Source: Anastatus disparis (lineage: Eukaryota > Arthropoda > Insecta > Hymenoptera > Eupelmidae). From it: a stretch of DNA of 64,000 nt. The position numbers and the translations under genes were made by a program. Location: NCBI GenBank assembly GCA_017163975.1, contig JAFFSR010000097.1, forward strand, positions 496,001 through 560,000. Direction: 5' to 3'. Shown here one piece after another: positions 11,801 through 62,667 of this stretch (positions are counted from its first letter, which is position 1; each line of letters starts with the position of its first letter). The notes below the pieces were generated by a model. It was not told where the DNA came from, did no database searches, and saw only the letters and a program-made list of their open reading frames with translations.

Positions 11801-12577
11801 GACAGAGGCAGACAGAGAGATAGAGGCAGACGGGCAGACAAAGACAAACAGACAGAAACAGACAGACAGAGACAGACGAACAGAGTCAGACAGAGACAGA
11901 CAGACAGAGAGGCGGACAGAGACAGAATAACAGAGACAGACAGACAGAGACAGACAAACAAAGACAGACAGAAAGGGAAGGACAGACATCGACAGACAGA
12001 CAGAGACAGACAGACAAAGACAGACAGACAGATAACGAGAAACAGAGACACACTTACAGAGACAGATAGATATGGACGAACCAACAAGGATGGACAGACA
12101 GAGGCAGACAGACAGACAGAGACAGACAGACAGAGACAGACAAACAGAGCCAGACAGACAAAGACAGACAACGTTGGACAGGCAGAGATATACATACAGA
12201 GACAGACAGACAGAGACAAACAGACAAGGACGGACAGACAGAGACAGACAGACAGATAGAGACAAATAGACACAGGCCGAGACAAACAGACAGAGACAGA
12301 AGGAGACAGATAGACAGAGGCAGAAGGGGACAGATAGACAGAGACAGACAGACAGCAACAGGCGGACAGAGACAGACGGACAGAATCAGACAGACAGAGA
12401 CAGACAGACAGAGACGGAGAGACTAAGACAGACAGACAAAGACAGAGAAACTGAGAAAGACAGACATTGGAGACAGACAGACGAAGACAGCCAGACAGAG
12501 ACTGACAGACAGAGACGGACAGACAGAGACAGACAGACAAAGACAGCCTGGCTCTGTCTGTCTGTCTCTGTCTGTCG
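8850..12577. repeat. 3.7-kb (GACA)n-type satellite with higher-order structure
   Basis: Basic unit is 14 bp, (GACA)3GA, on the plus strand, diverged. Higher-order copies are visible: ACAACGTTGGACAG occurs near 10064, 10966, 11531 and 12167; ACTGAATGACAGAGACTTAC occurs at 10231 and 11221; AGATAGCCAGACAAAGACAG occurs at about 10563 and 10788. No phase of the unit contains a stop codon on either strand, so very long Ser/Val/Cys/Leu (minus) and Asp/Arg/Gln/Thr (plus) open frames arise by chance; they are not genes. The last ~30 bp (12548-12577) are inverted and match the reverse complement of the array start. Confidence 0.95.
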
Positions 12578-15644: not shown

Positions 15645-16189
15645 GGCTGATTCCATTTCAAATCGAACAGTCAGTATACACTCATGTCACCAATTACTGC
15701 GCTAATGGAGTATGTTATTCTACCCTAAAAATAAGGGTATACGTATTTTTTTATTTTGCTGAAATATCAAAATTGCATCAGATATGCACTTTTGAAAATT
15801 GCATACAAAAACTAAATGTTAAAACTGAAAATGTTGAGAATAACTTTAGAGAGCTATCGTTTTACCAATTTCCAATGAATTTTGATAAACCTTTTTTTAT
15901 TTTATTTCGTTTTGAGCCCTCTTCAACTCCGTGCAAGAAATTAAAAAAAAAATTAAAAAATGACTGAGATATATGCATTTTACCAAAAAATGCACTTTTT
16001 ATGCACATGCATTTTTCTAGAAAAGGCCATTTTTTTTTTTGCTGAAATTTTTTTTGCTGATAGAGGACCAAAATACCTATCTAATAGTACTTGTTTGATC
16101 CCGGCTTTTTTGGTTTGGAGCGAGAAAAAAATTCACAAATTTTGTTGGTGAAAAATGCTTGTATATACGTTCGGAAGTCTTAAGCAGTC
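15645..16189. repeat. Left terminal inverted repeat (with 69-bp insertion)
   Basis: Matches 18383-18858 in inverted orientation except for the extra 15677-15745 segment, which is bounded by GTA on both sides and contains an ACCCTAAAAATAAGGGT hairpin. Confidence 0.9.
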
Positions 16190-16336
16190 GACATTTAAAT
16201 ATTATCCTCCGTTTAGCATTATCGAGGAACAACGACGTGGACGTAGAAGGATTCTGTTCCCTTCGGGGTGCTTTTTTAGAGTGAGTTCCCTTTGCCTCTC
16301 ACTGTTGGGATGCGTCAAAAAAATAATTATAGATAA

Positions 16337-18049
16337 TTATTTTTTTTTATTTTTGCGCTTATTATTTTTAGTTTTAAATGTAGTCTCACGACGCTTGGCT
16401 TTTTTTTTCTTGTTTTTCACTTCATTTAGTGCATGTATAGCTGTCCTGCCAATAAATATATGTGATTTTAATTTCCCAAGTTTTTTTAACCACATATGAC
16501 TTTTTTGAATTCCATTATATTTAGAAACCCCACTCCATTCAATATTTTTCTTTTTTCTAAATCTTTCAATCTCATTTATTGGTAATAAAATGATTTTTAT
16601 TGCATTGGTGTAACTTTGAACCCAATTTATAAAATCGTCAGCATTTTGTATCGATTCTTCATGAACTCTTTTCAAGTTATGTGAAGTAGCATAATGCTTT
16701 AGAAGCCCACCTATTCCATCAACGGCTCCTTTCCCATGACCAGTCGCAGAAAATAACCATTTCATTTCATAAAACCAATGTTTGAATTCATGTAGTTGAA
16801 AACGATTTTTAAATTGGCTTGGAGCTCCATCTGATATGATAGTGACTTTAGTAACTAAATAATTCTTTTTCATAAGATCGATAATTTTATTTATTGCTAG
16901 CAGTGCATATGCAGTATCATGCTTTTTGTCGTCACTAACTATCGCAAAACTTTGTGTTATCTCTCCTTGGTAACAGACTGCAGTAAAAATAGAAATTTGG
17001 TTATTTACCCAATGATTTCCTTGAACCGCTTTATTATTTATTACAGACCAATTTTCTGCAAAGTCAACGTGGATGATTAACTTAGTAGGATCAGCTTTAC
17101 CTTCTTCTTTTTCTTTTTTTATAGCTTCACGTTGAATATTTTTTATGTATATATGAGTACTTGCTTTCAATGCGCAGATTGAAAGTTTTTCTTTAAAAAC
17201 TGTTAAGCTTATTGTTTGTTTAATAAGATTACCATTATCCCACAAAGCAAACGTAATTTCATCTTCACAATTTTGTTTCAGTTTTAACAATTCTAATGTG
17301 ATACCTGCACCACCGGGACAATCTTTGCATTCTTGCAAGAAACATGAATCAGATGGTTCAGAACACAACATTGTGTTAGTTATTTCTGAACGAATTGAAT
17401 CTAATTCGGAATTCTTATCGCCTCTAAAACGAATCAAACTTGTAAGAAACAGTTCAAAATTTTCGCAATGTACACAAAGACAAGCTTCCTTCACAGGGCT
17501 AGTTAAGACGAAACTTGGTCTTAGACTATAGAATTTCGATTTTCCTATTTGTAAGTTTGATTGTATTGATTCAACTGAAATGCCATACGCATCTTCTAAT
17601 TTACTTCCAACAGTAGCAGAAAAAGCTGAAATTAAGGATTTTTTCTTTTTAGATACGTAATTTCCTCCAAAATTTTCAGGTATTGCAGTTTTTCTTTTTA
17701 GGGGTGAGATGCATTCAGGTAAAACTGAATTAATACTCTCGTTTAATTCCTCTATTCGTTCGGGTGTCTTCGGAATAAAATCATCACCTCTTCCGCTAAA
17801 AAGTTCAGTGATTTCATTTTCAGATATAGACTCAAGATCACTTAAAATCATTTTTGATATGCGTTTATGGCAATTTTTACATACATTAGTAGATGGCAAT
17901 ATATTTAAATCTGGATGAAGCTGTGCCAAATTAATGGCTAAATCTTCCAACGGTCTAAAACGTGAATTACTGCTCATATAAACTACCTTTTTATGCATTT
18001 GAAAAAAATCGGGACATGAAATTCTTTTAGAAGAGTAAATTTCGGACAT
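16337..18049 (-). CDS. Putative DDE-type transposase, 570 aa, uninterrupted
   Basis: Single open frame from ATG 18049, filling the space between the TIRs. Order of features: a CKNCH motif near residues 57-61; Cys clusters at 190-195 (CLCVHC) and 228-244, possibly zinc-binding; then IHVDFAENW (Asp329), IISDGAPSQFKNR (Asp407) and ATGHGKGAVDGIGG (Asp444), which have the spacing and beta-strand-like context expected of an RNase H-fold DDD/E core. The C-terminus (about residues 545-570) is extremely Lys-rich, a likely nuclear signal. I recall uncharacterised insect and cnidarian proteins with this SDGA..Q.KN / HGKG..DGIGG pattern but cannot name the superfamily with confidence; the 4-bp flank would fit Sola-type elements. 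Confidence 0.8.
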   Translation of the reverse strand: MSEIYSSKRISCPDFFQMHKKVVYMSSNSRFRPLEDLAINLAQLHPDLNILPSTNVCKNCHKRISKMILSDLESISENEITELFSGRGDDFIPKTPERIEELNESINSVLPECISPLKRKTAIPENFGGNYVSKKKKSLISAFSATVGSKLEDAYGISVESIQSNLQIGKSKFYSLRPSFVLTSPVKEACLCVHCENFELFLTSLIRFRGDKNSELDSIRSEITNTMLCSEPSDSCFLQECKDCPGGAGITLELLKLKQNCEDEITFALWDNGNLIKQTISLTVFKEKLSICALKASTHIYIKNIQREAIKKEKEEGKADPTKLIIHVDFAENWSVINNKAVQGNHWVNNQISIFTAVCYQGEITQSFAIVSDDKKHDTAYALLAINKIIDLMKKNYLVTKVTIISDGAPSQFKNRFQLHEFKHWFYEMKWLFSATGHGKGAVDGIGGLLKHYATSHNLKRVHEESIQNADDFINWVQSYTNAIKIILLPINEIERFRKKKNIEWSGVSKYNGIQKSHMWLKKLGKLKSHIFIGRTAIHALNEVKNKKKKAKRRETTFKTKNNKRKNKKK

Positions 18050-18382
18050 TGTTATTTCACAATTTTGTTGAATTTTTCACAAGCCCGAGAAGCACCTTTC
18101 AAAGCAGCCGTAAAAATAACTAGCTTCTATTTAACAGTTCTAATATGCTGTTTTGGTTACGCGATGTATTTGTCCGCGAGTTAGCCTCCTATTGTTTGTA
18201 CATCGAAACATACATAATATAGATGTACACGAATAGAATTCTTTTTTTTCATGTTTAAATATTTATTTTTATAATTCGAATTTACACACATATATATATA
18301 TTATATATATATATATATGCTATATACATGCATACAAATGTAAACAAATGATGAGCCAAGCATACGACAGTGTTTGAATGCA

Positions 18383-18858
18383 GACTGCTTAAGACTTCCG
18401 AACGTATATACAAGCATTTTTCACCAACAAAATTTGTGAATTTTTTTCTCGCTCAAAACCAAAAAAGCCGGGATCAAACAAGTACTATTAGATAGGTATT
18501 TTGGTCCTCTATCAGCAAAAAAAATTTCAGCAAAAAAAAAAATGGCCTTTTCGAGAAAAATGCATGTGCATAAAAAGTGCATTTTTTGGTAAAATGCATA
18601 TATCTCAGTCATTTTTTAGTTTTTCTTTAAATTTCTTGCACGGAGTTGAAGAGGGCTCAAAACGAAATAAAATAAAAAAAGGTTTATCAAAATTCATTGG
18701 AAATTGGTAAAACGATAGCTCTCTAAAGTTATTCTCAACATTTTCAGTTTTAACATTTAGTTTTTGTATGCAATTTTCAAAAGTGCATATCTGATGCAAT
18801 TTTGATATTTCAGCAAAATAAAAAAATACTGACTGTTCGATTTGAAATGGAATCAGCC
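18383..18858. repeat. Right terminal inverted repeat
   Basis: Inverse copy of the left arm, lacking the 69-bp insertion. The inner boundary is CGGAAGTCTTAAGCAGTC in both arms. Confidence 0.9.
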
Positions 18859-19789: not shown

Positions 19790-20890
19790 TGTAACGAGGA
19801 TAGCAAATTATACATATACTGTATGTCAGTATACTTCTACCTCTCTCCTCGTTGTGAGTCGCACAGCCTATTGTAAGCTTTTATGCTTACTTTATGGGTA
19901 TAAGAGTGAGACAGAGAGTGGATATTTCATCGTCTTGCGTGGCTGACGGTTAGCGAAGGCGCGTGCAAGACATGACGAGAAGGATTTCGGCAGCCATGAT
20001 ATACATTGTGTGAGCTCGTGCGTCGTGTGAATTTTATCAATTTTGTATAGAGAGGTAGACATCTTGTAAGAAGTTTCCTTTGTACGTGGCTTGTGCAGGA
20101 ATCAAGTGAGTTTGCCTGACTCTTGCAGAGAGATATAATCGTCCTGATAGGAAGATCTACGAGAGCTCAAGCTGCACCGCATTTTTTCGGTGCCGCTTCC
20201 GTTGTTCGATGAATTCGTCCTGGTTGGAGAGGATCATCGAGTTAATTGCGTGTCCTCCGACAGATATAAAAACGTAAGTCTGCAGACTATAGTACGGTGT
20301 ATTATTAACGAATGCGTATAGGCGATATATGTAAATATTGAGACCGTCGCGTGCGTTGCGCTTAGTAGAATGGGTTAGATTAAATTAAATTCTGTTTTCT
20401 TTCTTTTTATTTAACTTATTAATTTTTGCCATTATTAAAGTGTACAATAATTTCATTTCAATGTATTAAAATTTGTTTATCGTTTTGAATAAATTGAAGT
20501 TAAATTGAAATTATTCTGGAGTACCATATAACGTTATTTCTCTCTGTTTAAAATCGTGTGTTGTCTATATATATTGAACGTTATACACTTGCTTTCTTTT
20601 GATCTACGATATTTAAGAGAGTCTTAAGGTACACGCCGTGGGTTTCGTCGTACCAGACGTCCGGGAGGCAGAACTTCTAAGCAAAGTTCTGCAATAGAAT
20701 TAAATATTGCTTAACTGATTTTAGTTGTATGAAAAAGACATTCATATTCGATCAGTGGTAGTGCACGAGGCTGATCGTCTCTAAATCTAAAATCAGTTAT
20801 TTAACGGTAAGTGCGTATGTACTTGAAGTATGTACATATGAAGCCCACAAATATATTTGATTAGTTGATTTAAATATATTCCCCGTTACA
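19790..20890 (+). repeat. 5' LTR
   Basis: 1101 bp with TG..CA ends inside the inverted TGTAAC/GTTACA termini. A TATAAAA box lies near 20,266-20,272, followed at once by GTAAGT (donor-like). AATAAA is at 20,488-20,493. Same length as the 3' LTR. Confidence 0.95.
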
Positions 20891-25707: not shown

Positions 25708-26808
25708 TGTAACGAGGATAGCAAATTATACATATACTGTATGTCAGTATACTTCTATCTCTCTCCTCGTTGTGAGTCGCACAGCCTATTGTAAGCTTTT
25801 ATGCTTACTTTATGGGTATAAGAGTGAGGCAGAGAGTGGATATTTCATCGTCTTGCGTGGCTGACGGTTAGCGAAGGCGCGCGCAAGACATGACGAGAAG
25901 GATTTCGGCAGCCATGATATACATTGTGTGAGCTCGTGCGTCGTGTGAATTTTATCAATTTTGTATAGAGAGGTAGACATCTTGTAAGAAGTTTCCTTTG
26001 TACGTGGCTTGTGCAGGAATCAAGTGAGTTTGCCTGACTCTTGCAGAGAGATATAATCGTCCTGATAGGAAGATCTACGAGAGCTCAAGCTGCACCGCAT
26101 TTTTTCGGTGCCGCTTCCGTTGTTCGATGAATTCGTCCTGGTTGGAGAGGATCATCGAGTTAATTGCGTGTCCTCCGACAGATATAAAAACGTAAGTCTG
26201 CAGACTATAGTACGGTGTATTATTAACGAATGCGTATAGGCGATATATGTAAATATTGAGACCGTCGCGTGCGTTGCGCTTAGTAGAATGGGTTAGATTA
26301 AATTAAATTCTGTTTTCTTTCTTTTTATTTAACTTATTAATTTTTGCCATTATTAAAGTGTACAATAATTTCATTTCAATGTATTAAAATTTGTTTATCG
26401 TTTTGAATAAATTGAAGTTAAATTGAAATTATTCTGGAGTACCATATAACGTTATTTCTCTCTGTTTAAAATCGTGTGTTGTCTATATATATTGAACGTT
26501 ATACACTTGCTTTCTTTTGATCTACGATATTTAAGAGAGTCTTAAGGTACACGCCGTGGGTTTCGTCGTACCAGACGTCCGGGAGGCAGAACTTCTAAGC
26601 GAAGTTCTGCAATAGAATTAAATATTGCTTAACTGATTTTAGTTGTATGAAAAAGACATTCATATTCGATCAGTGGTAGTGCACGAGGCTAATCGTCTCT
26701 AAATCTAAAATCAGTTATTTAACGGTAAGTGCGTATGTACTTGAAGTATGTACATATGAAGCCCACAAATATATTTGATTAGTTGATTTAAATATATTCC
26801 CCGTTACA
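25708..26808 (+). repeat. 3' LTR
   Basis: 1101 bp, about 99.5% identical to the 5' LTR by eye, followed by the CGTA target duplication. Confidence 0.95.
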
Positions 26809-26929: not shown

Positions 26930-28525
26930 TCCCAAAAAATATAGAGCCCAAAAGAATAGAAAGCCCAGAAAAAATATAGGGCCCAGAAAAATATAAAGCC
27001 CAAAGTATGTAGAAACCAAAAAAATATTAGGCCCAAAAAAATATTGGGCATAAAGAAAAATAGGGCCCAAGAAAATATAAGACCCAAAAAAATATGAAGC
27101 CCAAAAAAATATTGGGCCCAAAAAAATATAGAGACCAAAAAAAATATTGGGCCCAAAATAATATAAGGCCCAGGAAAATATAGAGCTAAATAAAATATAG
27201 GACCCAAAAAAATATAGAACCCAAGAATATATAAATTAAAAAAAATATTGGGCCCAAAAAAAATATAAGATTCAAAAAAATATTAGGCCCAAAAAATATA
27301 GAGCCCAAGAATATATAGGAATCGAAAACATATAAGGCCCAAAAAATATTAAGCCCAAAAAAATATAGAGACCAAAAAAATATTGGGCCCAAAAAAATAT
27401 AGGGCGCAAGCAAATATAAGGCCCAAAAAAATATAGAGACCAAAAAAACATTAAGCCCAAAAAAATATAGGGCGCAAGAAAATATAAGGCCCAAAAAATA
27501 TAAAGCCCAAAAAATATTGGGCCCAAAAGATATAGGGCGCAAGAAAATATAAGGCCCAAAAAATATAAGGCCCAAAAAATATAAGGCCCAAAAAATATTA
27601 AGCCCAAAAAAATATAGTGACCAAAAAAATATTAGGCCAAAAAAAATATAGGGCGCAAGAAAATATAAGGCCCAAAAAATTATAGAGACTAAAAAAACAT
27701 TGGGCCCAAAAAAATATAGGGCGCAAGAAAATATAAGGCCCAAATAATATAAAGCCCAAAAAAATATGGAGACTGAATAAATATTGGGCCCAAAAAAATA
27801 TAGGGCGCAAGAAAATATAGAGCTAAATAAAATATAGGACCCAAAAAAATATAGAACCCAAGAATATATAAATTAAAAAAAATATTGGGCCCAAAAAAAA
27901 TATAAGATTCAAAAAAATATTAGGCCCAAAAAATATAGAGCCCAAGAATATATAGGAATCGAAAACATATAAGGCCCAAAAAATATTAAGCCCAAAAAAA
28001 TATAGAGACCAAAAAAATATTGGGCCCAAAAAAATATAGGGCGCAAGCAAATATAAGGCCCAAAAAAATATAGAGACCAAAAAAACATTAAGCCCAAAAA
28101 AATATAGGGCGCAAGAAAATATAAGGCCCAAAAAATATAAAGCCCAAAAAATATTGGGCCCAAAAGATATAGGGCGCAAGAAAATATAAGGCCCAAAAAA
28201 TATAAGGCCCAAAAAATATAAGGCCCAAAAAATATTAAGCCCAAAAAAATATAGTGACCAAAAAAATATTAGGCCAAAAAAAATATAGGGCGCAAGAAAA
28301 TATAAGGCCCAAAAAATTATAGAGACTAAAAAAACATTGGGCCCAAAAAAATATAGGGCGCAAGAAAATATAAGGCCCAAATAATATAAAGCCCAAAAAA
28401 ATATGGAGACTGAATAAATATTGGGCCCAAAAAAATATAGGGCGCAAGAAAATATAAGGCCCAAATAATATAAAGCCCAAAAAAATATGGAGACTAAATA
28501 AATATTGGACCCAAAAAAATATAGA
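26930..28525. repeat. GGGCCC/A-T minisatellite with a 637-bp tandem duplication
   Basis: Short units of about 17-19 bp such as GGCCCAAAAAAATATA (variants GGGCGCAAGAAAATATA and GAGACCAAAAAAATATT) repeat across 1.6 kb. 27181-27817 is repeated as 27818-28454 with no difference noticed by eye, starting TAGAGCTAAATAAAATATAG. Minus-strand frames rich in Phe/Leu/Ile/Trp/Tyr are a by-product of the repeat and not genes. Confidence 0.93.
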
Positions 28526-28627
28526 TACTTTAATATTTACTAAAATTGAAGTTACTAAAATAAAAAAGAAAATAAAGAGAAGTTAAATAAATAACTTTTA
28601 AAACATTAATGATATATTCTTAATTTA

Positions 28628-29301
28628 CAAGGAGAGTGTCAGGGTATTGGGACGCCGATCTTGCTTAAATTTTGGAAAATGATTTTAGATGTAGAAATAT
28701 AAAAAAAGCCAAGGTACTAGACTCTAACGCTCAATATTTCTCTAGTTACAGGCAAATAAAGAAAATCACTATAAAAATTACAAGATTTTCAAACGCTTAT
28801 GATTCATTAGCATTGATAGCTAGAAGCCTGAACCTTTTTTTAAATGAAAGTTGAGCTCAAATCCTTTCGAATTATTACTTATAGCATCCCGAAATATTAT
28901 TTTTTTCTATAGTTATGGAGGGATGAAAATTAGACATGAAATTCGTCTTCATAACATTAAATTTAATTAATTAATAGTAAATGCTAAAATTTGTTTCAAT
29001 TTTTATTCCTCTATAACTTTAGAAAAAAATAATATTTCGGGATGCTATAAGTGATAATTCGAAAGGATTTGAGCTCAACTTTCATTTAAAAAAAGGTTCA
29101 GGCTTCTAGCTATCAATGCTAATGAATCATAAGCGTTTGAAAATCTTGTAATTTTTATTGTGATTTTCTTTATTTGCCTGTAACTAGAAAAATATTGAGC
29201 GTTAGAGTCTCGTACCTTGGCTTTTTTCATATTTCTACATCCAAAATCATCTCCCAAAATTTGAGCAGGATCAGCGTCCCAATACCCTGACACTCTCCTT
29301 G
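28628..29301. mobile_element. 674-bp foldback element with ~295-bp arms (TWA-type target site)
   Basis: Arms 28628-28925 and 29008-29301 are inverted copies starting CAAGGAGAGTGTCAGGG, around an ~80-bp centre. TTA flanks both ends. A nearby direct copy of the flanking DNA (about 29,740-29,870) is uninterrupted at the matching position (CTGAACTTAGTAGTTAA), i.e. an empty site. The 3-bp TTA duplication suggests PIF/Harbinger-type transposition. Two relatives exist at 50310-50966 and 60919-61357. Short frames in the arms mirror each other and are not genes. Confidence 0.92.
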
Positions 29302-30463
29302 TTAGTAGTTAATTTTTGAACAAAAAATAATCAAACACCAATGTTTTAAAGGTTGCTTATTTATCTGTTCTTTATTTTCTTTTTTATTTTATTAATAGTT
29401 TTAAAATAAAAATTAAAAATTTAATATTTAGTGAAAGAAAATTAATTAAAAAGTAAAAGAAAATAAAAGACTTAAAAAAAAATCTTTTAATTAAAAGAAA
29501 ACGTGTTAAAGACAGTTTACAAAAAAATGTCTGTTACTTTACAGAACAAAGTGTCCATGAAGAAATGACAATCACATTAAATCAAAAAGAGATTAAGAAA
29601 ATATGAAATTGTAAATGTCTTTTTTATTTTTTTCAATTACAGATAATTAAAAAATTTCATGAAAAATATAAATCATATTTTTAGTTAAAAATCAACTTAT
29701 TTAAGAATCATTTTAAAATTATAAAGAATAAAATTTAAAAAAAAGTTAAATAAATAACCTTCAAAACATTGATGATATATTCTGAACTTAGTAGTTAATT
29801 TTTGGACAAAAATTAATCGAACACCAAAATTTTAAAGGTTGCTTATTTATCTGTTCTTTATTTTCTTTTTTACGTTGGTAACTTTAAATTAACTAAATAT
29901 TAAAGTATCAATATTCATTTTAATTTTTAAAATAATAAAAGTTAACTTTTTTATAGAGAAATTATTTTGAAAATATAACTTACGAATAAATAAAAGTTCA
30001 CGTAAGTACTTCCTTTGAAATACCTATCAATTCAAATTAGGTTATCATGAGGTTATAACCATAAACAATTTTAAAGTTGAATTTCCGTTATATATGTCGT
30101 TTACCTCCAAGTCATTACATACGTAAATTTTCTTATTTCTAAGAGATCTACACCAATGTTATGTATTTTTTTATATTTTTTTTACATATGTTTTATTTAA
30201 TAGCTTTTTTTCTCTTTTCTTTTTTTTTGCAGCGTACGGTTACAATTTATTACAGTAATATAATCGCAACTTTGAATACTTTTATAAAAGCTCTGGGGTT
30301 ACAATAATAAAAGTTATTGCGCTAATAAATAATAAATCACGCCACGACGAGGTAACGTCAAATAACAGCCAGGCAAATATATGCATCGTTGGATTATCAA
30401 CTGTCGGTATATAGGATACTATACGTATATATAGATGAAAAAATATACAGCCAAAGCCATTCA
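29302..30463. other. AT-rich DNA with a duplicated flank of the foldback, no gene seen
   Basis: TAGTAGTTAATTTTTG and GGTTGCTTATTTATCTGTTC occur both at about 29,303-29,375 and 29,790-29,860. The second occurrence is the empty-site copy. No coding signal in the rest. Confidence 0.6.
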
Positions 30464-30498: not shown

Positions 30499-30564
30499 TT
30501 GAGAGTTTGGGACGTTATTCATGTAACTTTGGGTATTGTGTATGTAGTTTGAATTGTATATATA

Positions 30565-30835
30565 CAGGGTGATTGGAAAACATTGGTACATATTTATATC
30601 GTTAGATTCAGCGCAATAAACTGATCCCGAAAAAAATGTTCTAAATTTTTTTTTAATTCTACCAATATATTGCCAATATATTCGCAATGTGTTGGTAAAA
30701 TTTTCTCCAACATCGCCAATATATTGGCAATACATTGGTAAAATTAAAAAAAAATACTTATAATTTTTTTCGGAGTCAGCTTATTGCGCTGGATCCAATG
30801 ATATAAATATGTATCGATGTTATCCAATCACCTTG
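30565..30835. mobile_element. 271-bp TA-flanked MITE (Tc1/mariner-like)
   Basis: Inverted arms of about 77 bp begin CAGGGTGATTGGA at the left and CAAGGTGATTGGA (inverse) at the right, flanked by TA on each side. The core has repeated CCAATATATTG palindromes. CAGGGTG ends and TA duplication are typical of mariner-type elements. Confidence 0.88.
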
Positions 30836-30984
30836 TATATGTTGAAGATACATATATGTACAGAGCTTGTAATTCGGTCTGTGCGAATATAACAGAATCT
30901 AAATTTTCTTTTTCATTTTTTTTATAAATTTTATTTTTCGCTGTTGAAAATATATAATTCTTGTTGAAAAATTTAGACTTCTCT

Positions 30985-37369: not shown

Positions 37370-38525
37370 TATCACCGTTAAGTAAATACCCTGGGAAATT
37401 AAAATCTCTATTATTATACGACAATAATTTTAGAATACTAATTCGTTATTATAATAATCTTTTCTCATTTGCTACATTTAACGCTAATGTTAAATATGAA
37501 AGACAAAAAGCAATTTATAATTTGAAAATTCAAGGTCAAGTGTGTCATATAACACCTAATTTTTTATTACCAGTTAATAATGAAGATCCCTCTTGTGGTC
37601 AATTGTACATTTATGATAAAAATAAATGCAGTTGAAAAAACATTGAAAAATAATGAAAATTTAAGTAAAGAACACAGAAATTCTTACTAAAATTTTGAAT
37701 AATAATCCTTATGCCAAAAATTATAAATATTTACATCAATTATCAAATTTGGAAAACCATCCTAACTATAAATTATATTTCATTCGTAAAAATAATGAAC
37801 AAAAACATGTTTATAATAAACCACTTATATCAGAGTGTGGTGCTATTATTGTTTCTGATTCTGGCATTTCAAGTAATTTTGATATATGCGTATATCCTAA
37901 AAATGATTTGAATGATATAAAAAGTCATACTTATATTAATAAGTTATCGCATCATGTTGATCCAATGGTTTTTCCAATAATGTTTCCTGCTGGTGATTTA
38001 GGATGGAGTATTGGATATAAAAAAATTCCTAATTTAAATAATAATGAAAATCTTAGCATTTTACAGTTTTATACATATAGATTATCTTACAGACTTGATG
38101 CAAAAAATTTTAGTCCATTATTATTCGGAGGAAGATTAACTCAGCAAATGTTTTTACACGCATGCATTATGGTAGAAAGTAATAGAATGAATTTTTTTAG
38201 AAATAACCAAAAGCAATTAAGATTAGAATACTCCCAAGGTCTATTAGGTCACGTTATAGGTACTGCTTCAAATGATTCACAAAATAAAATTTTTTTTATC
38301 GATGGTCCTGGTGGATCAGGTAAAACATTTTTATATAGAACTTTAATTTTTTATTTTCTATCTATCAATAAGAGAATTTTATCTATGGCTTGGACTGGCA
38401 TTGCATCAATTCTATTACCTTGGGGTATGACAAGTCATAGAACATTTAGATTACCTTTAGATATGAGTAATATTGAAATTGCCTTTTTAAAATTAGAGTC
38501 AGATAAAAAAAATACGCGAAGCTGA
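37370..38525 (+). pseudogene. Helitron N-terminal domain fused to helicase start
   Basis: Segment 37,370-37,640 reads FRILIRYYNNLFSFATF and a following QVCHITPNFLLP stretch. The frame from 37,695 contains DPMVFPIMFPAGDLGW, FYTYRLSYRL, LLFGGRLTQQ and RMNFFRNNQKQLR, all Helitron N-domain hallmarks. It then jumps to IFFIDGPGGSGKTFLYR (Walker A, intact). The Rep HUH and Tyr motifs that should separate these are deleted. Confidence 0.85.
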
Positions 38526-39541
38526 TTGTATAATTTGGGATGAAGCTTCCATGATTTCAAAGAAAGCTTTGGAAATTGTTGATAGAACATTAAAAGATGT
38601 ATGTAATAATGATTTACCATTTAGTGGTAAGTTGATAACACTAGGAGGTGATTTCCGTCAAATTTTACCAATTATAAAAAAAGGGATTAAAGATACAATA
38701 AAAAAGAAAAAATATAAAATATTCACATTGTTGGTCATTATTTAACATCTTAAATTTGAAATCAAATATACGATCTCAGAATAAAAATTTTTCAAAATTA
38801 TTATTAAAAATTGGCGAAGATAAAATTAATACATTTAAAATATCAGAAGAATGGAAAACTATTGATATATGTACAACAATTTATAAAAATATTAATAATT
38901 CAGATATTGAAAACAAAGTTATTTTGGCTGCACATAACGATGATGTAAATGTACTTAACAATAAAATATTAAAATTACTTGATGGTGAAATTATAACATA
39001 TTATAGCATTGATTAAGCTTTACATAAAGGAATTGATGAAGTAGATGAAAATATTCATTTAAATTATCCAACTGAGACGTTAAACAAAATTCAGGAAGGA
39101 CTTCCACCCCATAAATTAAATTTAAAAATTAACGCAATCGTTATGTTAATTAGAAACTTAAGCATAAACGACGGTTTATGTAATGGTACAAGATTAAAGA
39201 TAAATAAATTATTCAAATATAATATAGAAGCAGAAATTATAACAGGTGAAAAAATTGGAAATAAAGTTTTCATTCCTAGAATTACGTTAAATACTGAAAA
39301 TTCTTTTTCTTTACCATATAATTTGTACAGAAAACAATTTCCAATAATATTAGCATTCGCGATAACAATTAACAAATCACAAGGACAGAGTTTTGATAAA
39401 ATAGGTTTATATATTAAACGTCCATTATTTTCTCACGGGCGATTACATGTTGCTCTTTCAAGATGTAAAAATCCAAATAAAATTTTCATACAAAATGATG
39501 TAAAAAATTTACAATTTATACAGAATATTGTTTGGAGATAA
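38500..39541 (+). pseudogene. Helitron Pif1-like helicase, C-terminal part
   Basis: After a frameshift in an A-run, IIWDEASM (Walker B/motif II) appears, then ITLGGDFRQILPI, a break near 38,745, LPPHKLNLKINAIVMLIRNL, a TAA near 39,015, GLCNGTRLKI, ILAFAITINKSQGQSF and LHVALSRCKNPNK. These follow the SF1B helicase motif order to the C-terminus. Ends at 39,541. Confidence 0.88.
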
Positions 39542-39638: not shown

Positions 39639-39711
39639 TGTTTATTTTAATAGGATGGCAGTGAACAACAATAAGGTGCAAAAACACAAGAGACAAAAAT
39701 ACTTTAATGTT
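39639..39711 (-). repeat. BEL 3' LTR stub
   Basis: Matches the end of the 5' LTR up to ACTTTAATGT, then switches to pol sequence: a deletion junction. Confidence 0.88.
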
Positions 39712-40739
39712 TATTTCTGTACTGAATTGGATAAATGATACTCAAGAATAGCACCTAAAATGAAAGGGCTACACGTTAGACCGAAAACTAAACGCTTATG
39801 ACGAAAAACTGACACTTTACCGTCTGAAAACCATAAAAATCTTAAGTAATCTCTGACTTTTTGATTTATCTCAATCTGTAAAAATGCTTTACGTATGTCA
39901 GATATTACACCAATTTCATTTTCCCGGAATCTTAATAAGGTGTCCGGTATTAACTCTATAAGATTTTGACCTTTCTCGAGGCACTGATTCAAGGAGGGAA
40001 ACCTTTTTTCACGAGCGGACGCATCAAAGACTGGCCGGATTTTTGTAGTACGAAAAGGTTTAATAACATGGCGATGCGGTAGATAATGTGAAAAATTATC
40101 AATTTCCTTTGCCGGTACAAGTTCAATAAAATCTTGATTGATCCAATCTTTAAATACGTTATCATACTCTTCGAAAACCCCGTCTTTTTTCAATTTTTCC
40201 GATAATTTAATGAGGTGTGTCTTGGCTAATTCTAAATTACGCGATACCGGCGCATAATTATCTATCCACGGTAAATCAACAGAATATCTTTTATTCGAAT
40301 TTAAATATACGGTTTCTAAAAAGCGTTCTTTTATATTTTGTTCTTTTGTAAGATAATCAGATTTTTCTATTGGATCGCGTATACCCAAAACGTCCAAATG
40401 CCACAAATCAGTAATTTTCGCTTCATTAACAAACATAGACATTGAGGTCATAACATTATCTACTTTTTCTGTGCTCGGAATTTTTCCCATTATCGTCCAG
40501 CCAAATTTATACTCAAGCGCTGTCAAACCGTTATTTAACGCCCATTTATTTCCAGTAAGAAGCTTGCCTGCTATATCAGCACCTATTAGTAGGTCAATCG
40601 TATCATCGCAACATTTTGAATTTACTGTTAAATCACTGAGAATAATATTTCTATCTTTTATTTCTTCAAGGCATACATTATTATTAATCTTAGGTATATC
40701 AGCGCAAATAACGTTTTGACTCACGACTTGAAATTGCAC
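39711..40739 (-). pseudogene. pol: BEL Pol, N-terminal RT portion, truncated
   Basis: 342-codon frame covering the protease-RT linker and RT up to FGLTCSPFILGA. Visible RT features: YLPHRHVIKPF, TTKIRPVFDASARE, NQCLEKGQNLIELIP, IGVISDIRKAFLQIEI (catalytic Asp of motif A) and FRHKRLVFGL. The YxDD box is absent because the element is deleted right after EYHLSN. A one-base frame change near 40,740 separates it from the SLNGDYSCNF segment at about 40,740-40,764. Confidence 0.9.
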
Positions 40740-41885
40740 GAATAATCTCCGTTTAAACTTTTCATATGCGCTTTATATATGGGTCAAAATAACATCTTTT
40801 TATAAAAGTGTGCGCATGTGGATCACCGATTTTGCTGATTTTGAGATATGTTTTAGTATTATTAAAGTTAGGAATCTGTGCAAAATTTCAGCTCTCTAAG
40901 TGCAAAACTCGCCGAAATATGGCCTTTCAAAGGTCAAAAACTCCGCTTTTTTCGGCTGTTTTTCACTCTTTTTCAAAATTCTGCCAAGACTCGAGTTTTT
41001 AACATATTTTAATTCGGCAGGCGGCAATTTCTTCGTTTTTATGTTAATTTTAAATTTTCGTAATTATATTTTTAAAAAATTCTAATCAGGCTTCTGAAAA
41101 CTCTTAGAATAAAATACTGATTTTTGACATTTTTGACAATTTTTAAACAGCTGTAACTCATTTGAATTTTGATATTTTTAAATTATCAAAATTTTGTTTT
41201 ATTGGTCAAAAAGAAAGCTTTAATTTGCATTTTTAAATTTTCAAAAAGGTTTAAAATTGACGGAGATACAAAGGTTTAAAGTTTGCAAAATTTCTAAAAT
41301 ATACGTTTTTTACAAAATTTAGATCATTGTAACTCTGGCCGGACAACTTCAAATTCACTAAATCTTACAAGAAAACTTTCTATAAGTCACGTAAAATGAG
41401 GCCAAATAGGCCTGGTCAATGGTATCCTACGATTTTACTATTATTTGAACCTCTCATAATTCAGTATTTTTGCTTCACAAGTAAATCAATACACCCAGCT
41501 GTTGCGTCTTCTACTCATAAATGCGAAAACCTTAAAAGATTCAACAGGCTATAAATTATGAAATGAGCGATAAAAAACTTGATTTTATGCTTGAGTATAG
41601 GTCTCTAGGTCGTTTAGAATAAAAGTTATAACAGTTTGAGAATTTTTTATTTCTCAAGGTATCAAATCCGTGAACGCTTACTCTAGCCGATTTTTAGATT
41701 GGTCTTAAATTTCCTATAACTTAATTTTTATGATACTTCAGGACTCTTATTGAAGCTCTAATTAAAAATTATTGCTTGTAATTTCAATATCTTTGATGAA
41801 GTATAAATGTAAGTCTGCTAACATCTAAAATAAACAACTTTATTTTTTCTTATAACATCGTTAAGTCCCTATTGAAAATAATGAC

Positions 41886-42012
41886 GTCTTTTAAAGACGT
41901 CTTTGAAGAAACGTCTTTTAAAGACGTCTTTAAAAGACGTCTTTGGATGTGTCTGGATTTGTAACAAAAAAAGACGTCTTTAAAGACGTCTTTGAAAGAC
42001 GTCTTTTAATAA
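41886..42012. repeat. AAAGACGTCTTT cluster, left arm
   Basis: About eight to ten copies of the 12-bp palindrome AAAGACGTCTTT (or close variants) in 127 bp, partly overlapping as GACGTCTTTTAAAGACGTC. Mirror image at 42562-42700. Confidence 0.9.
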
Positions 42013-42561
42013 CGTCATAAGTCACAAGAGAAAATTCAAAAGTAGTTAAACTACAGGATAATAATTATTTTTTATTTTTCATTAAAACCTACAAAAATAC
42101 CTCTATTCATTAGTTGAAATAGAGTGTGAGAAAACTATCATTATTTTAGATCAAACGAAACTGTCAGTTTATATGCTCTGAACTGTCTTATTCTTTTCGT
42201 GCGCATTTGCTTACCATAAAGAAATCAATCGCTAAAAAGCGCGGTAGCCCTCTAACGAGCAATCATTAGTACTATTATATACATTCATATCAATTTGTAT
42301 AATAGTACTGATGATTGCTCGTTAGAGGGCTACCGCGTTTTTTAGCGATTGATTTCTTTATGGTAAGCAAATGCGCACGAAAAGAATAAGACAGTTCAGA
42401 GCATATAAACTGACAGTTTCGTTTGATCTAAAATAATGATAGTTTTCTCACACTCTATTTCAACTAATGAATAGAGGTATTTTTGTAGGTTTTAATGAAA
42501 AATAAAAAAATAATTATTATCCTGTAGTTTAACTACTTTTGAATTTTCTCTTGTGACTTAT

Positions 42562-42700
42562 GACGTTATTAAAAGACGTCTTTCAAAGACGTCTTTTAAA
42601 GACGTCTTTTTTTGTTACAAATCCAGACACATCCAAAGACGTCTTTTAAAGACGTCTTTAAAAGACGCCTTCTAAAGACGTCTTTAAAAGACGTCATTAT
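42562..42700. repeat. AAAGACGTCTTT cluster, right arm
   Basis: Mirror of the left-arm cluster with a few point differences (for example GACGCCTTC), showing the arms diverge slightly here. Confidence 0.9.
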
Positions 42701-43813
42701 TTTCAATAGGGACTTAACGATGTTATAAGAAAAAAATAAAGTTGTTTATTTTAGATGTTAGCAGACTTACATTTATACTTCATCAAAGATATTGAAATTA
42801 CAAGCAATAATTTTTAATTAGAGCTTCAATAAGAGTCCTGAAGTATCATAAAAATTAAGTTATAGGAAATTTAAGACCAATCTAAAAATCGGCTAGAGTA
42901 AGCGTTCACGGATTTGATACCTTGAGAAATAAAAAATTCTCAAACTGTTATAACTTTTATTCTAAACGACCTAGAGACCTATACTCAAGCATAAAATCAA
43001 GTTTTTTATCGCTCATTTCATAATTTATAGCCTGTTGAATCTTTTAAGGTTTTCGCATTTATGAGTAGAAGACGCAACAGCTGGGTGTATTGATTTACTT
43101 GTGAAGCAAAATACTGAATTATGAGAGGTTCAAATAATAGTAAAATCGTAGGATACCATTGACCAGGCCTATTTGGCCTCATTTTACGTGACTTATAGAA
43201 AGTTTTCTTGTAAGATTTAGTGAATTTGAAGTTGTCCGGCCAGAGTTACAATGATCTAAATTTTGTAAAAACGTATATTTTAGAAATTTTGCAAACTTTA
43301 AACCTTTGTATCTCCGTCAATTTTAAACCTTTTTGAAAATTTAAAAATGCAAATTAAAGCTTTCTTTTTGACCAATAAAACAAAATTTTGATAATTTAAA
43401 AATATCAAAATTCAAATGAGTTACAGCTGTTTAAAAATTGTCAAAAATGTCAAAAATCAGTATTTTATTCTAAGAGTTTTCAGAAGCCTGATTAGAATTT
43501 TTTAAAAATATAATTACGAAAATTTAAAATTAACATAAAAACGAAGAAATTGCCGCCTGCCGAATTAAAATATGTTAAAAACTCGAGTCTTGGCAGAATT
43601 TTGAAAAAGAGTGAAAAACAGCCGAAAAAAGCGGAGTTTTTGACCTTTGAAAGGCCATATTTCGGCGAGTTTTGCACTTAGAGAGCTGAAATTTTGCACA
43701 GATTCCTAACTTTAATAATACTAAAACATATCTCAAAATCAGCAAAATCGGTGATCCACATGCGCACACTTTTATAAAAAGATGTTATTTTGACCCATAT
43801 ATATTATGCGATT

Positions 43814-45389
43814 GTTTGTCTGAACTAACACCACCGAATAATGCGTGTTTTATTTCAATATTACCGACAGGTTTATAACCTAAAAATTCAGCGACTTCAG
43901 CGCGTATATACGACCGTTGTGAGCCATCGTCTATGAGTGCACGCGCAATTTTACTTCGAGAGCCAGCATACAAAATTACGCGCAACGTTTTCAAACTAAT
44001 ATCAGGCAAACCGTAAAAATTCGAAAGAGCGAGTTTCGTTTTCTCTTTATTTACATCTGTATCATTTTTCTCTATAATCGTGCTGCTCGTTGTATTACAG
44101 AGCGAAGGACAAACTAACATTGAATGCCGTTTACCGCACCACGCACATGATATCCTTACTTAACAATTTTTTGCTCTATGTGCATGCTTAAGACATTTAA
44201 AGCAACAATTATTTTCTTTAATAATCTTTTTTCGTTCGTCTATACTTAATCTTTTTGCTTTCTCACACGACGTGTTATTATGATTTTCGTCACAAAAGAT
44301 ACATTTTATTTGTTTATTTTCGCTCGATAATAATACGCTCGCGGTCGACGTGTCGCTAGGTGACGTTGGCTTACCTTTATTTTCTTTGAAATAAACGCGC
44401 TTATTTTCTTTCGATTCTATAGAAAAGCCGCTAACTGCCATGTTGATACTCTCTTCATTATCCGCTTCTGTTTCTAAGAATTCCAATTGTCTTGTAAGTC
44501 GATCTGGTATTACAGCGTCGCCGTTGTTTCCATTAATAACACTGTGATTCGCTCGTTGCCAAATTCTAAGAATTTCCTCTGGTAGCGAGGACTCTACCAG
44601 CGGATATAGCATCGTCGCGCAATTATTCGTTTTAACACCTAAAGTCTCTAATGCGCGTATATGTGATGACACTTTATCATAAATCGATGAAAGGCTAGTT
44701 TGTTGTTTTCCTTTATTTGATGCGTTTTGTAAAGCCAACGATAATAATTCTCTCATATAATATTCTATTAAGAGATCATCGCGACCGTAGCGATTCTTTA
44801 AACTTTCAAATGCTTTATCGTAATTTTTGGGTGATGTAGGGAAACCTTCTACTATACTTTGCGCTCTCGAACCTTTTTCCATCTATCGTTTCAAGTATTC
44901 TAATTTGTCTTCTTTTGAAATACTCGCGTCTTCATGTATTTTCTTATAATGCGACCAAAATTGCAGCCATTTGCTTACGCTGCCTCCAAACGTTGGTGGT
45001 TCCAACGTGGGTCGCTTAAACGGTTTTTCTACACGAATCCCAGCTTGATTTACCGCTGCTACTTGATTGTTGAGATTGGCTTGTTCTAAGAAATCATATC
45101 TTGCCTTTAGAAAATTTTGTTTTTAAGTTTCGTGCGATTTTGCTTCTGTTTCGATAACTTCGTCGGTTATGCGTTCTTTATCAAAAAGATATTCAATAAA
45201 TTTTGTACTCGCTATTTCCAATTCCGACATTCTAGCTTCGAGCAATTGTAAAGCCACGTGTCTATCAGCGAGACTAACATTTGCGTTACCATATTTTTCC
45301 TTAAAACTGTTCAAGTTTCTCGTAAACAAAGTACGTTGGATTTTGCGTTGCTTTTTAAGACTGTCCATGTTTAACAAAAAATAACGCAC
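43814..45389 (-). pseudogene. gag: BEL Gag plus protease, three in-frame stops
   Basis: One frame from ATG near 45389 through Gag (RYDFLEQANLNN, RPTLEPPTFGGSVSKW, GFPTSPKNYDKAFE, YMRELLSLAL; DUF1759-type BEL Gag). Zinc knuckles CIFCDENHNNTSC, CFKCLKHAHRAKNC and CAWCGKRHSMLVC follow, then the aspartyl protease with ARALIDDGSQRSYI (Asp-Asp-Gly at the DTG position). Stops: TAA near 45,123, TAG near 44,883, TAA near 44,160. No frameshift over ~1.6 kb, so decay is mainly by point nonsense. The frame is cut by the palindrome at 43,804. Confidence 0.88.
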
Positions 45390-50116: not shown

Positions 50117-50309
50117 AGTGAGATAAATATAATTTTAGAATATAAATATTTGAAACTTAGTAAAGATAAAAACAAAAGTATAGCTTGATGTTAGCAAGTA
50201 ATTTTTAAGATGACTATTGGTGTCAAAATAAGAAAATATTTTTACAATTTCTGTAAAAATACTGTCAAAATTAAAATTAATTTTTACAATTTTTATATTT
50301 TTTAGCTAA

Positions 50310-50966
50310 AAAGGAGAGTACCCGACCTTCGGGAAATGGATTTGGCTGAAACTGTAGAATATGATTTTTTGATGAAAAAAAATTAAATCGTGTTTTTTCT
50401 TTTCATTGAATAGGCCCTATAGGCAGAGATAAGGACATTTTTTGAAAAATATAATAAAAAGAAGCATTCATAAGATCTTAAATAACCAAACAACTAAGAT
50501 TCTTACGAAAAAATGTACTAAAAATAAAATAACGTACAAATTAAATGCTTTAAATTAAGCTTTGTTGCACTAGAAAAGCTGTCACATTTCAAAACGTGTG
50601 CCTAATTGAAAATTAATAAATTTGTTAATATTTTTTGCGTGTAACATATCATCAATTTTTTAGGCTATTCCATTAGCATATCTTAATCGCCTGTAACTTT
50701 TGAACCACTAAAGCTTTCTTGATGCATAAAAGCTTTAATTAAAGAATTGAATCTGTTCTTTATTTTGTTTCCAATATATTTTTTTGTAAGAGTCTTAATT
50801 ATTTGGTTATTCAAGATCTTATAAATGCTCCATTTTATTATATTTCCAAAAAAATTTCCTTATCTCCGTTTATGGTTATAAAACACGGGTCCATTTTTTT
50901 TCATCAAAAAATCATATATTGCATTTTCAGCCAAATCCGTTTCCCGAAGGACGGGTACTCTCCTTG
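50310..50966. mobile_element. 657-bp foldback element, same end type as 28,628 element
   Basis: Inverted arms (~300 bp each) starting (A/C)AAGGAGAGTACCCG, flanked by TAA on both sides (50307-50309, 50967-50969). Ends share CAAGGAGAG with the foldback at 28628-29301, and the TAA/TTA duplications fit a TWA target preference. Non-coding; the frames in the arms mirror each other. Confidence 0.88.
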
Positions 50967-51020
50967 TAAGTTTATTGCTGCATCCATTAGAGAGACAGAT
51001 ATTTAAATAAATATAAATAT

Positions 51021-60918: not shown

Positions 60919-61357
60919 CTTTTCAAATCCTTTCGAAAAAGCACCTATAGCATATCAAAATATTATTTTTTCCCAAAGTTACAGCGTTATAAGAATTTGA
61001 GCTGAATTTCCTTTTAAAAATATTAATTAATGATAAATGTTAAAATGTAGTACAATTTTCATAACGCTGTAACTTTGGGAAAAAATAATATTTTGATATG
61101 CTATTGGTGCTTTTTCGGAAGGATTTGAACGTAGCTTTCATTTAAAAACAGTTACAAGAGTCTAGCTGTTAATGCTAAAGAATTATAAGCGTTTAAAAAT
61201 CTAGTAACTTTTTTAGTGATTTGCTTTAATTGCCTGCAACTAGAGAAATATTGAGCGTTGGGGTCTATAACTCTGGCATTTTCCATATTTTTACATCTAA
61301 AAACCCATCTCAAAGTTAGAGCAAAATCCGTGATCCGGAGATGTGATACTCTCCTAG
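60919..61357. mobile_element. Truncated foldback, same family as 28,628 element
   Basis: The right part (61,060-61,357) matches the right arm of 28628-29301 (shared CTAGCTGTTAATGCTAA-like, AATATTGAGCGTT and ending ACTCTCCTAG then TTA). Only the inner ~72 bp of the left arm remain (60,919-60,990). One end has been lost. Confidence 0.85.
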
Positions 61358-62667
61358 TTAGAGTTTAATAATTACTTTGAATGTTGCAAATGCTATCTAG
61401 CTAAACATGGATGTTCCGAGTAAGATAAACATTGTCTACAAGAATATCTTTTGAAATTTAGCCATTTTCTATTAATAACATGTACGTTTCCCGAGATGAC
61501 ATCTCACAATATCCAGGTGATCCTGGCTACCTGGAAATCGTCTATATGAATGAATTTTGAAATTTTCCATACCGGTTATGAAGTTTACAGGCATTTGCAG
61601 GGACTACTTCTAATGAAACTTGGAGATTCTTTTAGATTTCGATTCTAAGGTTGTTTGATTAGGTCGAAGAATACTCGGAAATCAAAAGATTTTCAAAGAA
61701 CAATTGTTTAAGATTCATGCAACTTCCATGAAATATGTTGATTTACTCGTAGTCGATACCCATACATAAAGATCATTCATACAAATCATGTCGCATATAA
61801 ATTTGCGGTAGTATCCCTACTGATTTATGAATTTATCGTTCAAATAATGCCAGCGAAATTCAACTTCGAGAAAGCATATAACTATCGTAATTAGTGAATA
61901 ATTTTAACCTTTTTTCATCAAACATCATTCCGATATACAGGTAATAAGCGTTATTATTTAAAAAATTTGAGAATTTATGAATCTTAGCAATTATTTACTT
62001 ATCACGAAAGTTAAGAAATCATATTAGTAATTCATTTTATTTGAATTAAATCATTTAAAATCTATAAAAGTCAAATTCCAAATATAAAGAAATCTTGAAT
62101 CAGTTATGCATTCACATATAATTTTTATTCAATCTTTAACATTTTTGTTTATTTAACCGAACAATAAACATTCTTTCTATTTACATGAAATCATGAAACT
62201 CTAATTTTTTACAAAAATAAAAAGTAATTGTTTTAAACATGATTTATTACAAATATTATTTCCTTAATAGACATAAATCTTTGAAATAATTAAAGATATC
62301 TAATACTATTACAAAATTATAGAAAATGAGGATATATTTTAAGAGGAAGAATCATATTTCTGTCCTTTGCTAATGAGAAAATTGGTTTTTCGAATAAAAA
62401 TAAATTAAAATAGAGATAATATATTGACTATGAATAAGATTTACATAATTAGGCGCATTTATGCATATTGTGTATGGACTATGGATACATCGTATATTAT
62501 ATGTGGGCTCATATAAATACACAGGTTCTCTATAGCTTTTTATGCATGACTTCTGAATTTTTTTCCATACGATGTGACCTTATGTAAAGCAATAAAACAA
62601 TTTCTTTTATGTCATTTATTTAAATTATTTATTTACTTCATGCTGGTAAAAATTTACAATATTATAT
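61358..62667. other. AT-rich DNA, no gene seen
   Basis: No coding or structural feature recognised over ~1.3 kb. Confidence 0.5.

What the first reader, a model, noticed from the sequence alone, without database searches (positions are those of the whole stretch)
40774..43804. 3-kb near-perfect palindrome inserted in BEL with a 9-bp target duplication
Arms of ~1.5 kb face each other around a spacer of a few dozen bases, carry no coding sequence, and are flanked by TATGCG(C/A)TT. Removing the insert and one flank leaves the BEL reading frame continuous at the junction, so this is a real transposition event. Length, foldback shape and 9-bp duplication fit a Foldback/MULE-type non-autonomous element. 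Perfect palindromes this long are unstable, so near-identity implies recent insertion or arm-to-arm gene conversion.
Basis: partly seen in the sequence, partly recalled or inferred. Interest (0 to 1): 0.75.

Follow-up and report, generated by a model that had tools for sequence, protein, structure and literature searches.

The report
Three-kilobase palindromic jumping DNA
A 3-kb stretch of DNA that reads almost the same on both strands has jumped into an old retrotransposon in what looks like an arthropod genome; it is a long and nearly perfect example of a known kind of non-coding jumping DNA, and the 9-base target duplication first proposed for it is really about 6 bases, so its family is still open.

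Summary
The palindrome is real: arms 40774-42288 and 42289-43803 abut, practically without a spacer and without coding sequence. It did insert into a BEL element. The claimed 9-bp duplication TATGCG(C/A)TT is wrong: both 9-mers are ordinary BEL sequence, and BEL relatives show that the AT run at each end is BEL sequence too. The insertion is then 3,022 nt: a 3,016-nt element (40781-43796, GGGTCAAAA...TTTTGACCC) plus a 6-bp ATATAT duplication. This junction wins against 27 of 27 relatives with a usable score and by 16.8 bits on a 13-sequence profile. Duplications of 4 or 2 bp stay possible; 9 does not. The main argument for Mutator/MULE falls and the superfamily is unassigned. Best reading: a non-autonomous foldback-type DNA transposon moved by a transposase encoded elsewhere, the longest of five palindromic structures the self-comparison found in this window. 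Arms agree at 1,498 of 1,512 columns; outside one repeat-array cluster, every substitution lies in the innermost 50 nt. The own-genome search did not complete (15 attempts), so copy number, partner and superfamily are untested.

The parts
40781..43796 (.). palindromic insertion (3,016 nt), ends GGGTCAAAATAACATC / GATGTTATTTTGACCC
40781..42288 (+). left arm, 1,508 nt
42289..43796 (-). right arm, 1,508 nt; 1,498 of 1,512 aligned columns identical to the left arm
42280..42297 (.). apex: 18 nt holding the three innermost arm mismatches; predicted loop 6 nt at 42286-42291
40775..40780 (+). left copy of the target duplication ATATAT (BEL coding sequence)
43797..43802 (+). right copy of the target duplication ATATAT
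41879..42009 (+). array of 12-13-nt units AAAGACGTCTTT, each unit itself a palindrome, in two blocks in the left arm
42572..42699 (-). mirror array in the right arm
40820..40836 (+). subterminal sequence GGATCACCGATTTTGCT, shared (one base apart) with another element in the window at 61320-61336
43741..43757 (-). mirror copy of the subterminal sequence
43803..44159 (-).
39711..40774 (-).
44160..44882 (-). BEL gag-like frame with Pfam DUF1759

Best explanation
A non-autonomous foldback-type (long inverted repeat) DNA transposon. Shown: a 3,016-nt near-perfect palindrome in which no coding sequence was found sits in a BEL retroelement between two copies of ATATAT where the relatives have one. 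Inferred: a transposase made elsewhere in the genome bound the identical ends (GGGTCAAAA..., perhaps also the subterminal GGATCACCGATTTTGCT and the GACGTC array), cut the element out and joined it to staggered breaks in an AT run, and gap filling made the 6-bp duplication. Also inferred: near-identity of the arms reflects a young insertion and/or arm-to-arm correction, with the apex, where a hairpin is opened or stays unpaired, escaping correction.
For: Palindrome and identity. Different BEL sequence outside each end, adjoining parts of one gene, which a mirrored read would not give. Of 21 relatives aligned to both flanks, 17 have exactly four residues more between the anchors than the bare left-flank frame supplies, and the 6-bp junction supplies them. 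It scores 45.8 bits against 29.0 for the 9-bp reading and 22.3 for no duplication, and wins against 27 of 27 relatives with a local score of 60 or more. The exact direct repeat ends where the symmetric GGGTC/GACCC ends begin. Tandem repeats of like size near or inside the inverted repeats are described for Tm1 (PMC3169594) and Muta1 (PMC5225508). Four other palindromic structures were found in the window, one of which shares the subterminal sequence.
Against: No second copy was seen: none in the window; the own-genome search did not complete; scans of viral and prokaryote collections, which may leave out the window's own genome, found no relative. No transposase with these ends was found. By symmetry alone, 4 bp (TATA) or 2 bp (AT) fit as well as 6. 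A single locus cannot prove mobility. The link to the window's other palindromes is thin: of the 3 matches (0 of 100 shuffles had 3, the largest had 2) two are this element's own arms, the pattern was picked after seeing the alignment, the wider alignment to the 61-kb element scores no more than the best of 60 shuffles (51 against 51, z 4.1), and the alignments to the 28-kb and 50-kb elements are at background (z -1.3 to 1.8). Six of the 13 profile segments come from one spider species.
Confidence: 0.8

Rival explanations
1. Mutator-like (MULE/Foldback) element; with a 9-bp duplication in the reader's form, or an atypically short one. (Partly compatible with the best explanation: it names a superfamily.)
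For: Long inverted repeats with tandem repeats inside; most foldback elements are thought to be MULEs (PMC4079207 section 17). Plant MULEs that target TA repeats have GGGG ends (MuTAnT), and this one has GGG next to an AT run. The two 9-mers agree at 8 of 9 (0.13% of random draws).
Against: Collapsing the 9-mers removes 6 residues that relatives have; 0 of 27 relatives with a usable score prefer it. The longest exact repeat at the true ends is 6. Tm1, and MuTAnT copies outside perfect TA repeats, have 9 bp.
Confidence: 0.2
2. Member of a superfamily that makes 6-bp duplications (Polinton/Maverick or IS3EU/GingerRoot).
For: 6 bp is the length stated for Polinton and usual for IS3EU (PMC10045372 passages).
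Against: IS3EU ends are TA..TA; here counting the TA as element sequence leaves no 6-bp duplication. Polinton ends (5'-AG, recalled) are not met. No integrase or polymerase was found in the insert.
Confidence: 0.12
3. Assembly artefact: the true element has a unique middle or a single arm, and the assembler mirrored or collapsed it.
For: Foldback read artefacts exist in long-read data (PMC12870357 passages). Five of the 14 differing arm columns are single-base homopolymer lengths, as noise in long reads would give. Reads could not be examined.
Against: A mirrored read would repeat the same flank; here the two flanks are different, adjoining parts of one gene. The arms also differ by substitutions at the apex and by a change cluster in the repeat array.
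Confidence: 0.08
4. Inverted duplication formed after insertion: an ordinary element landed and later became palindromic by fold-back repair, giving a Mu killer-like hairpin locus.
For: A transposon-derived inverted duplication is known in maize (Mu killer, PMC3440606, abstract read). Foldback priming at breaks is one proposed route to inverted duplications (PMC10622511, start of abstract in a search listing).
Against: Both ends abut the same 6-bp duplication, so two like ends were present at insertion; other structures in the window are also palindromes with small spacers. Conversion of an original centre cannot be excluded.
Confidence: 0.1

Closest known systems
Tm1, Mutator/Foldback family of root-knot nematodes (PMC3169594; abstract, parts 1-2 of 3 of the Results and part 1 of 2 of the Discussion read)
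   Same: Foldback-like inverted repeats holding tandem units of about 14 bp; non-autonomous members without coding sequence; MITE-like members.
   Different: 9-bp duplications; whole elements of 0.17-2.5 kb with a distinct middle between the repeats; a transposase-bearing member is known.
MuTAnT, TA-targeting MULE of Medicago (PMC4486113; passages and Discussion read)
   Same: Foldback, G-rich ends, next to TA repeats, mostly non-autonomous.
   Different: Plant; 9-nt duplications in the copies outside perfect TA repeats; about 0.2 to over 1.6 kb; the target here is a short AT run inside a gene.
Tetris foldback element of Drosophila virilis (PMC4079207; abstract and one section read)
   Same: Foldback, non-autonomous, repeats inside the arms, transposase unknown.
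   Different: 8-10 bp duplications; internal repeats of about 220 bp.
Muta1 of Aedes aegypti (PMC5225508; passages read)
   Same: 12-bp tandem repeats near the ends; 3.2 kb long.
   Different: Encodes a transposase; 145-bp inverted repeats; 8-9 bp duplications.
Arthropod MULEs in general (PMC13359780; abstract and section 3.2 read)
   Same: Some have very long inverted repeats, up to 1,193 bp.
   Different: Those are transposase-bearing elements; in most species the repeats are 20-95 bp; the arms here are 1,508 nt with no middle.
Mu killer of maize (PMC3440606; abstract read)
   Same: Long inverted duplication including transposon end sequence, proposed source of a hairpin RNA.
   Different: Built from part of a transposase gene and two end copies, and shown to silence its family; here no transcription data and no coding sequence.

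Membership tests
Foldback-type (long inverted repeat, non-autonomous) DNA transposon | very long inverted repeats filling the element | tested here: met
   arms 1,508 nt, predicted apex loop 6 nt
Foldback-type (long inverted repeat, non-autonomous) DNA transposon | tandem repeats inside the arms | tested here: met
   12-13-nt AAAGACGTCTTT units in both arms
Foldback-type (long inverted repeat, non-autonomous) DNA transposon | target duplication at both ends | tested here: met
   ATATAT
Foldback-type (long inverted repeat, non-autonomous) DNA transposon | several dispersed copies | not tested
   The genome search did not answer in 15 attempts (first, last); no second copy in the 64-kb window
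Mutator/MULE | 8-10 bp target duplication | tested here: not met
   at most 6 bp; 8-10 bp is the typical length, 4-10 bp is quoted for the MuDR/IS256 group
Mutator/MULE | inverted repeats over 100 bp | tested here: met
   criterion
Mutator/MULE | MULE transposase in an autonomous partner with the same ends | not tested
   genome search not answered; 7 of 10 arm frames gave no Pfam match better than E 0.055
IS3EU/GingerRoot | TA..TA ends with a 6-bp duplication | tested here: not met
   the 6-bp repeat uses up the TA run; ends are then GGG..CCC
Polinton/Maverick | 6-bp target duplication | tested here: met
   4 or 2 bp not excluded
Polinton/Maverick | integrase and DNA polymerase genes; 5'-AG ends (both recalled) | tested here: not met
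   no coding sequence found, ends GGG; a non-autonomous derivative would also lack the genes

The most novel reading that the evidence does not exclude
A DNA transposon lineage whose normal non-autonomous form is an almost spacerless palindrome of up to 3 kb, with 6-bp duplications in AT runs, kept symmetric by arm-to-arm correction that fails only at the apex. Read-through transcription would give a 1.5-kb hairpin RNA, making each copy a possible Mu killer-like source of small RNAs against its own family.
Probability: 0.12. Interest if true: 0.6.

Novelty: new member of a known kind. Interest (0 to 1): 0.3.

Why it matters
Long palindromes with alike arms and little or no spacer carry the highest risk of instability (review PMC7999016, passages read). 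A 3-kb one that inserted with a short duplication and stayed symmetric is therefore a good test case for how such elements move and survive. It also shows a general trap: in AT-rich sequence a look-alike direct repeat just outside an AT run can be mistaken for the target duplication. Comparing host protein relatives across the junction fixes the ends and changes which superfamilies are plausible.

Tried and rejected
A first look at the frame seemed to break it: the downstream open frame in the listing is one nucleotide off because the BEL copy carries a frameshift beyond the junction.

An argument from a mismatched 9-mer against near-identical arms (older insertion plus arm correction) was dropped, because the true duplication is 6 of 6 identical. 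My first description of an 18-nt hairpin loop was corrected to 6 nt.

Relatives of the element were sought in viral contigs (0 matches each; 3) and prokaryote genomes (0; 80, the listing cap). These collections may leave out the window's own genome. A blastn of the left arm against all 83 fetched loci gave one 27-nt match; I take these matches as chance. BEL was sought in viral contigs: 2 pattern matches, no relative. A 73-aa arm frame used as a handle on unannotated copies: nothing. The 28 Rfam matches at relaxed threshold are all below gathering score and are what a long hairpin is expected to give; none reached gathering score in the whole window. The promoter/terminator scan uses bacterial models and was not used. 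The transposase-like gene at 16337-18076 with 475-nt inverted repeats was considered as partner, but by eye its ends do not resemble the palindrome's. Literature: one search gave 0 papers for its terms; (19 of 19 listed; 16 of 16; 12 of 5,914) I saw no such long palindrome in the titles and abstract openings. I make no claim that none is in print.

Full report
What is there. Inverted-repeat search and global alignment place two abutting arms at 40774-42288 and 42289-43803. Self-comparison of the window finds the palindrome as one 3,038-column match at 99.08% identity. GC content is 29% against 31% for the window. With the refined ends (below), each arm is 1,508 nt and 1,498 of 1,512 columns agree. 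Predicted folding pairs 2,998 of 3,016 bases, all within 6 positions of the mirror base; the predicted apex loop is 6 nt, 42286-42291.

Arm differences. Of the 14 differing columns, five are single-base differences in homopolymer length (one in the GACGTC array), which could be sequencing noise. Four form a cluster in the GACGTC array, one of them a substitution. Five are substitutions at arm positions 1459-1506, in the innermost 50 nt; the last three lie within 9 nt of the centre. Taking only the two at 1459 and 1487, the chance that both fall in the inner 50 of 1,498 positions is 0.0011, a test chosen after seeing the data. Homogenisation that fails at the apex, or damage at the apex, would both give this pattern.

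Contents. The longest stop-to-stop frame in an arm is 73 aa; 300 mononucleotide shuffles average 70 and 101 of them reach 73. Seven of the 10 arm frames of at least 40 aa were scanned against Pfam; the best match was E 0.055. Each arm carries two blocks of 12-13-nt units around AAAGACGTCTTT, itself a perfect palindrome; 14 of the 18 GACGTC sites of the window lie in the element.

The host. On the minus strand the element interrupts a BEL-type element: a gag-like frame with DUF1759 (44882-44160), then a stretch whose relatives are annotated as aspartic protease (DUF1758; its own best Pfam match of that kind is only E 0.2), the insertion, then sequence running to a reverse-transcriptase match below Pfam's cut-off. 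A search with the downstream flank found 110 relatives; those that bear an organism name are arthropods (for example Colletes, Cardiocondyla, Leptopilina, spiders, beetles). The window is therefore probably from an arthropod; the species was not determined.

Where the ends are. Read on the minus strand, the right flank runs ...K Q S H N I Y and only then GGGTC; the left flank, after GACCC, reads (I Y) K A H M K S L N G D Y S C N F. Relatives read, for example, Q H H N I F S V K M R D L N D N F A C N F (P0003). The AT run at both ends is therefore BEL coding sequence, present twice. Of 21 relatives that align with both flanks, 17 have exactly four residues more between the anchors than the bare left-flank frame gives; two have two more, and two have no usable local alignment.

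Tests of the junction. A profile was built from 13 relatives' segments, picked from the 110 by a pattern; six of the 13 are from one spider species. Removing 6 bp gave the best score of 17 tested lengths, 47.3 bits; the next best was 41.3. Among 2,880 combinations of ends and frames, the 22 best rows, and 23 of the 25 shown, all remove 3,022 nt. Pairwise, 27 of 27 relatives with a local score of 60 or more prefer the 6-bp junction. The direct repeat at these ends is ATATAT exactly, and the ends of the remaining element are the symmetric GGGTC/GACCC. By symmetry alone, a 4-bp TATA or a 2-bp AT duplication, with one or two more AT bases in the element at each end, would fit equally.

Consequence for classification. 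MULEs typically make 8-10 bp duplications (PMC5225508 passages), although 4-10 bp is quoted for the MuDR/IS256 group (PMC10045372 passages). Polinton and IS3EU make 6 bp, but the IS3EU TA..TA ends do not fit, and the Polinton AG ends (recalled) do not either. I therefore leave the superfamily open. Among arthropod MULEs the longest inverted repeat reported in one survey is 1,193 bp (PMC13359780 section 3.2), shorter than the arms here. Structure says foldback-type; the mechanism (cut-and-paste by a transposase in trans) is inferred.

Neighbours. The self-comparison (pieces over 150 columns, E below 1e-10) shows four further palindromic structures, at 28552-29395, 30560-30840, 50311-50965 and 60922-61129. 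Those at about 28.6-29.3 kb and 50.3-51.0 kb begin with AAGGAGAGT at both ends; the 61-kb one ends in AGGAGAGTA. The 61-kb one shares GGATCACSGATTTTGCT with the big palindrome: 3 matches in the window when up to 3 mismatches are allowed, all exact. No shuffle of 100 had 3 and the largest had 2, but two of the three are this element's own arms and the pattern was chosen after seeing the alignment. The wider alignment is weak: score 51 against a best of 51 in 60 shuffles, z 4.1; alignments to the 28-kb and 50-kb elements are at background, z -1.3 to 1.8. So palindromic insertions are common here and this one is the longest and most perfect, but a family link is only a lead.

What could not be done. 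Copy number, empty sites, the autonomous partner and read support are therefore all untested.

Verdict. A true and striking observation with a mistaken target duplication: a long and highly symmetric new member of a known kind. Its superfamily is open, and the point is quickly testable once the genome can be searched.

Noticed in passing
15743-18829: Transposon-like unit: inverted repeats of 475 nt (97%) around a 579-aa frame (16337-18076, minus strand) with no Pfam match at E 0.01 and no PDB match at E 1; of 32 relatives listed (best 7,995 candidates scored) the two with an organism name are Ixodes ticks. No target duplication was recognised.
   Followed up: partly
28627-29302, 50306-50970, 60922-61365: Smaller, more diverged palindromic elements with AAGGAGAGT or AGGAGAGT ends; the 28.6-kb and 61-kb ones are about 75% alike over some 450 nt. 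No clear target duplications at the 28.6-kb or 50.3-kb ends.
   Followed up: partly
19790-20890 and 25708-26808: Direct repeats of 1,101 bp, 99.5% identical, around a frame with a weak retrotransposon gag match: probably the long terminal repeats of a young retrotransposon.
   Followed up: no
8850-12546: 3.7-kb array of 14-nt CAGACAGACAGAGA-like units, open in several frames on both strands, up to 654 aa of low-complexity translation.
   Followed up: no
26934-28524: 1.6-kb array of 17-nt AAAAAATATAGGGCCCA-like units.
   Followed up: no
37665-39541: Broken Helitron-like helicase pieces (PIF1 and Pif1_2B matches) close beside the truncated BEL.
   Followed up: no
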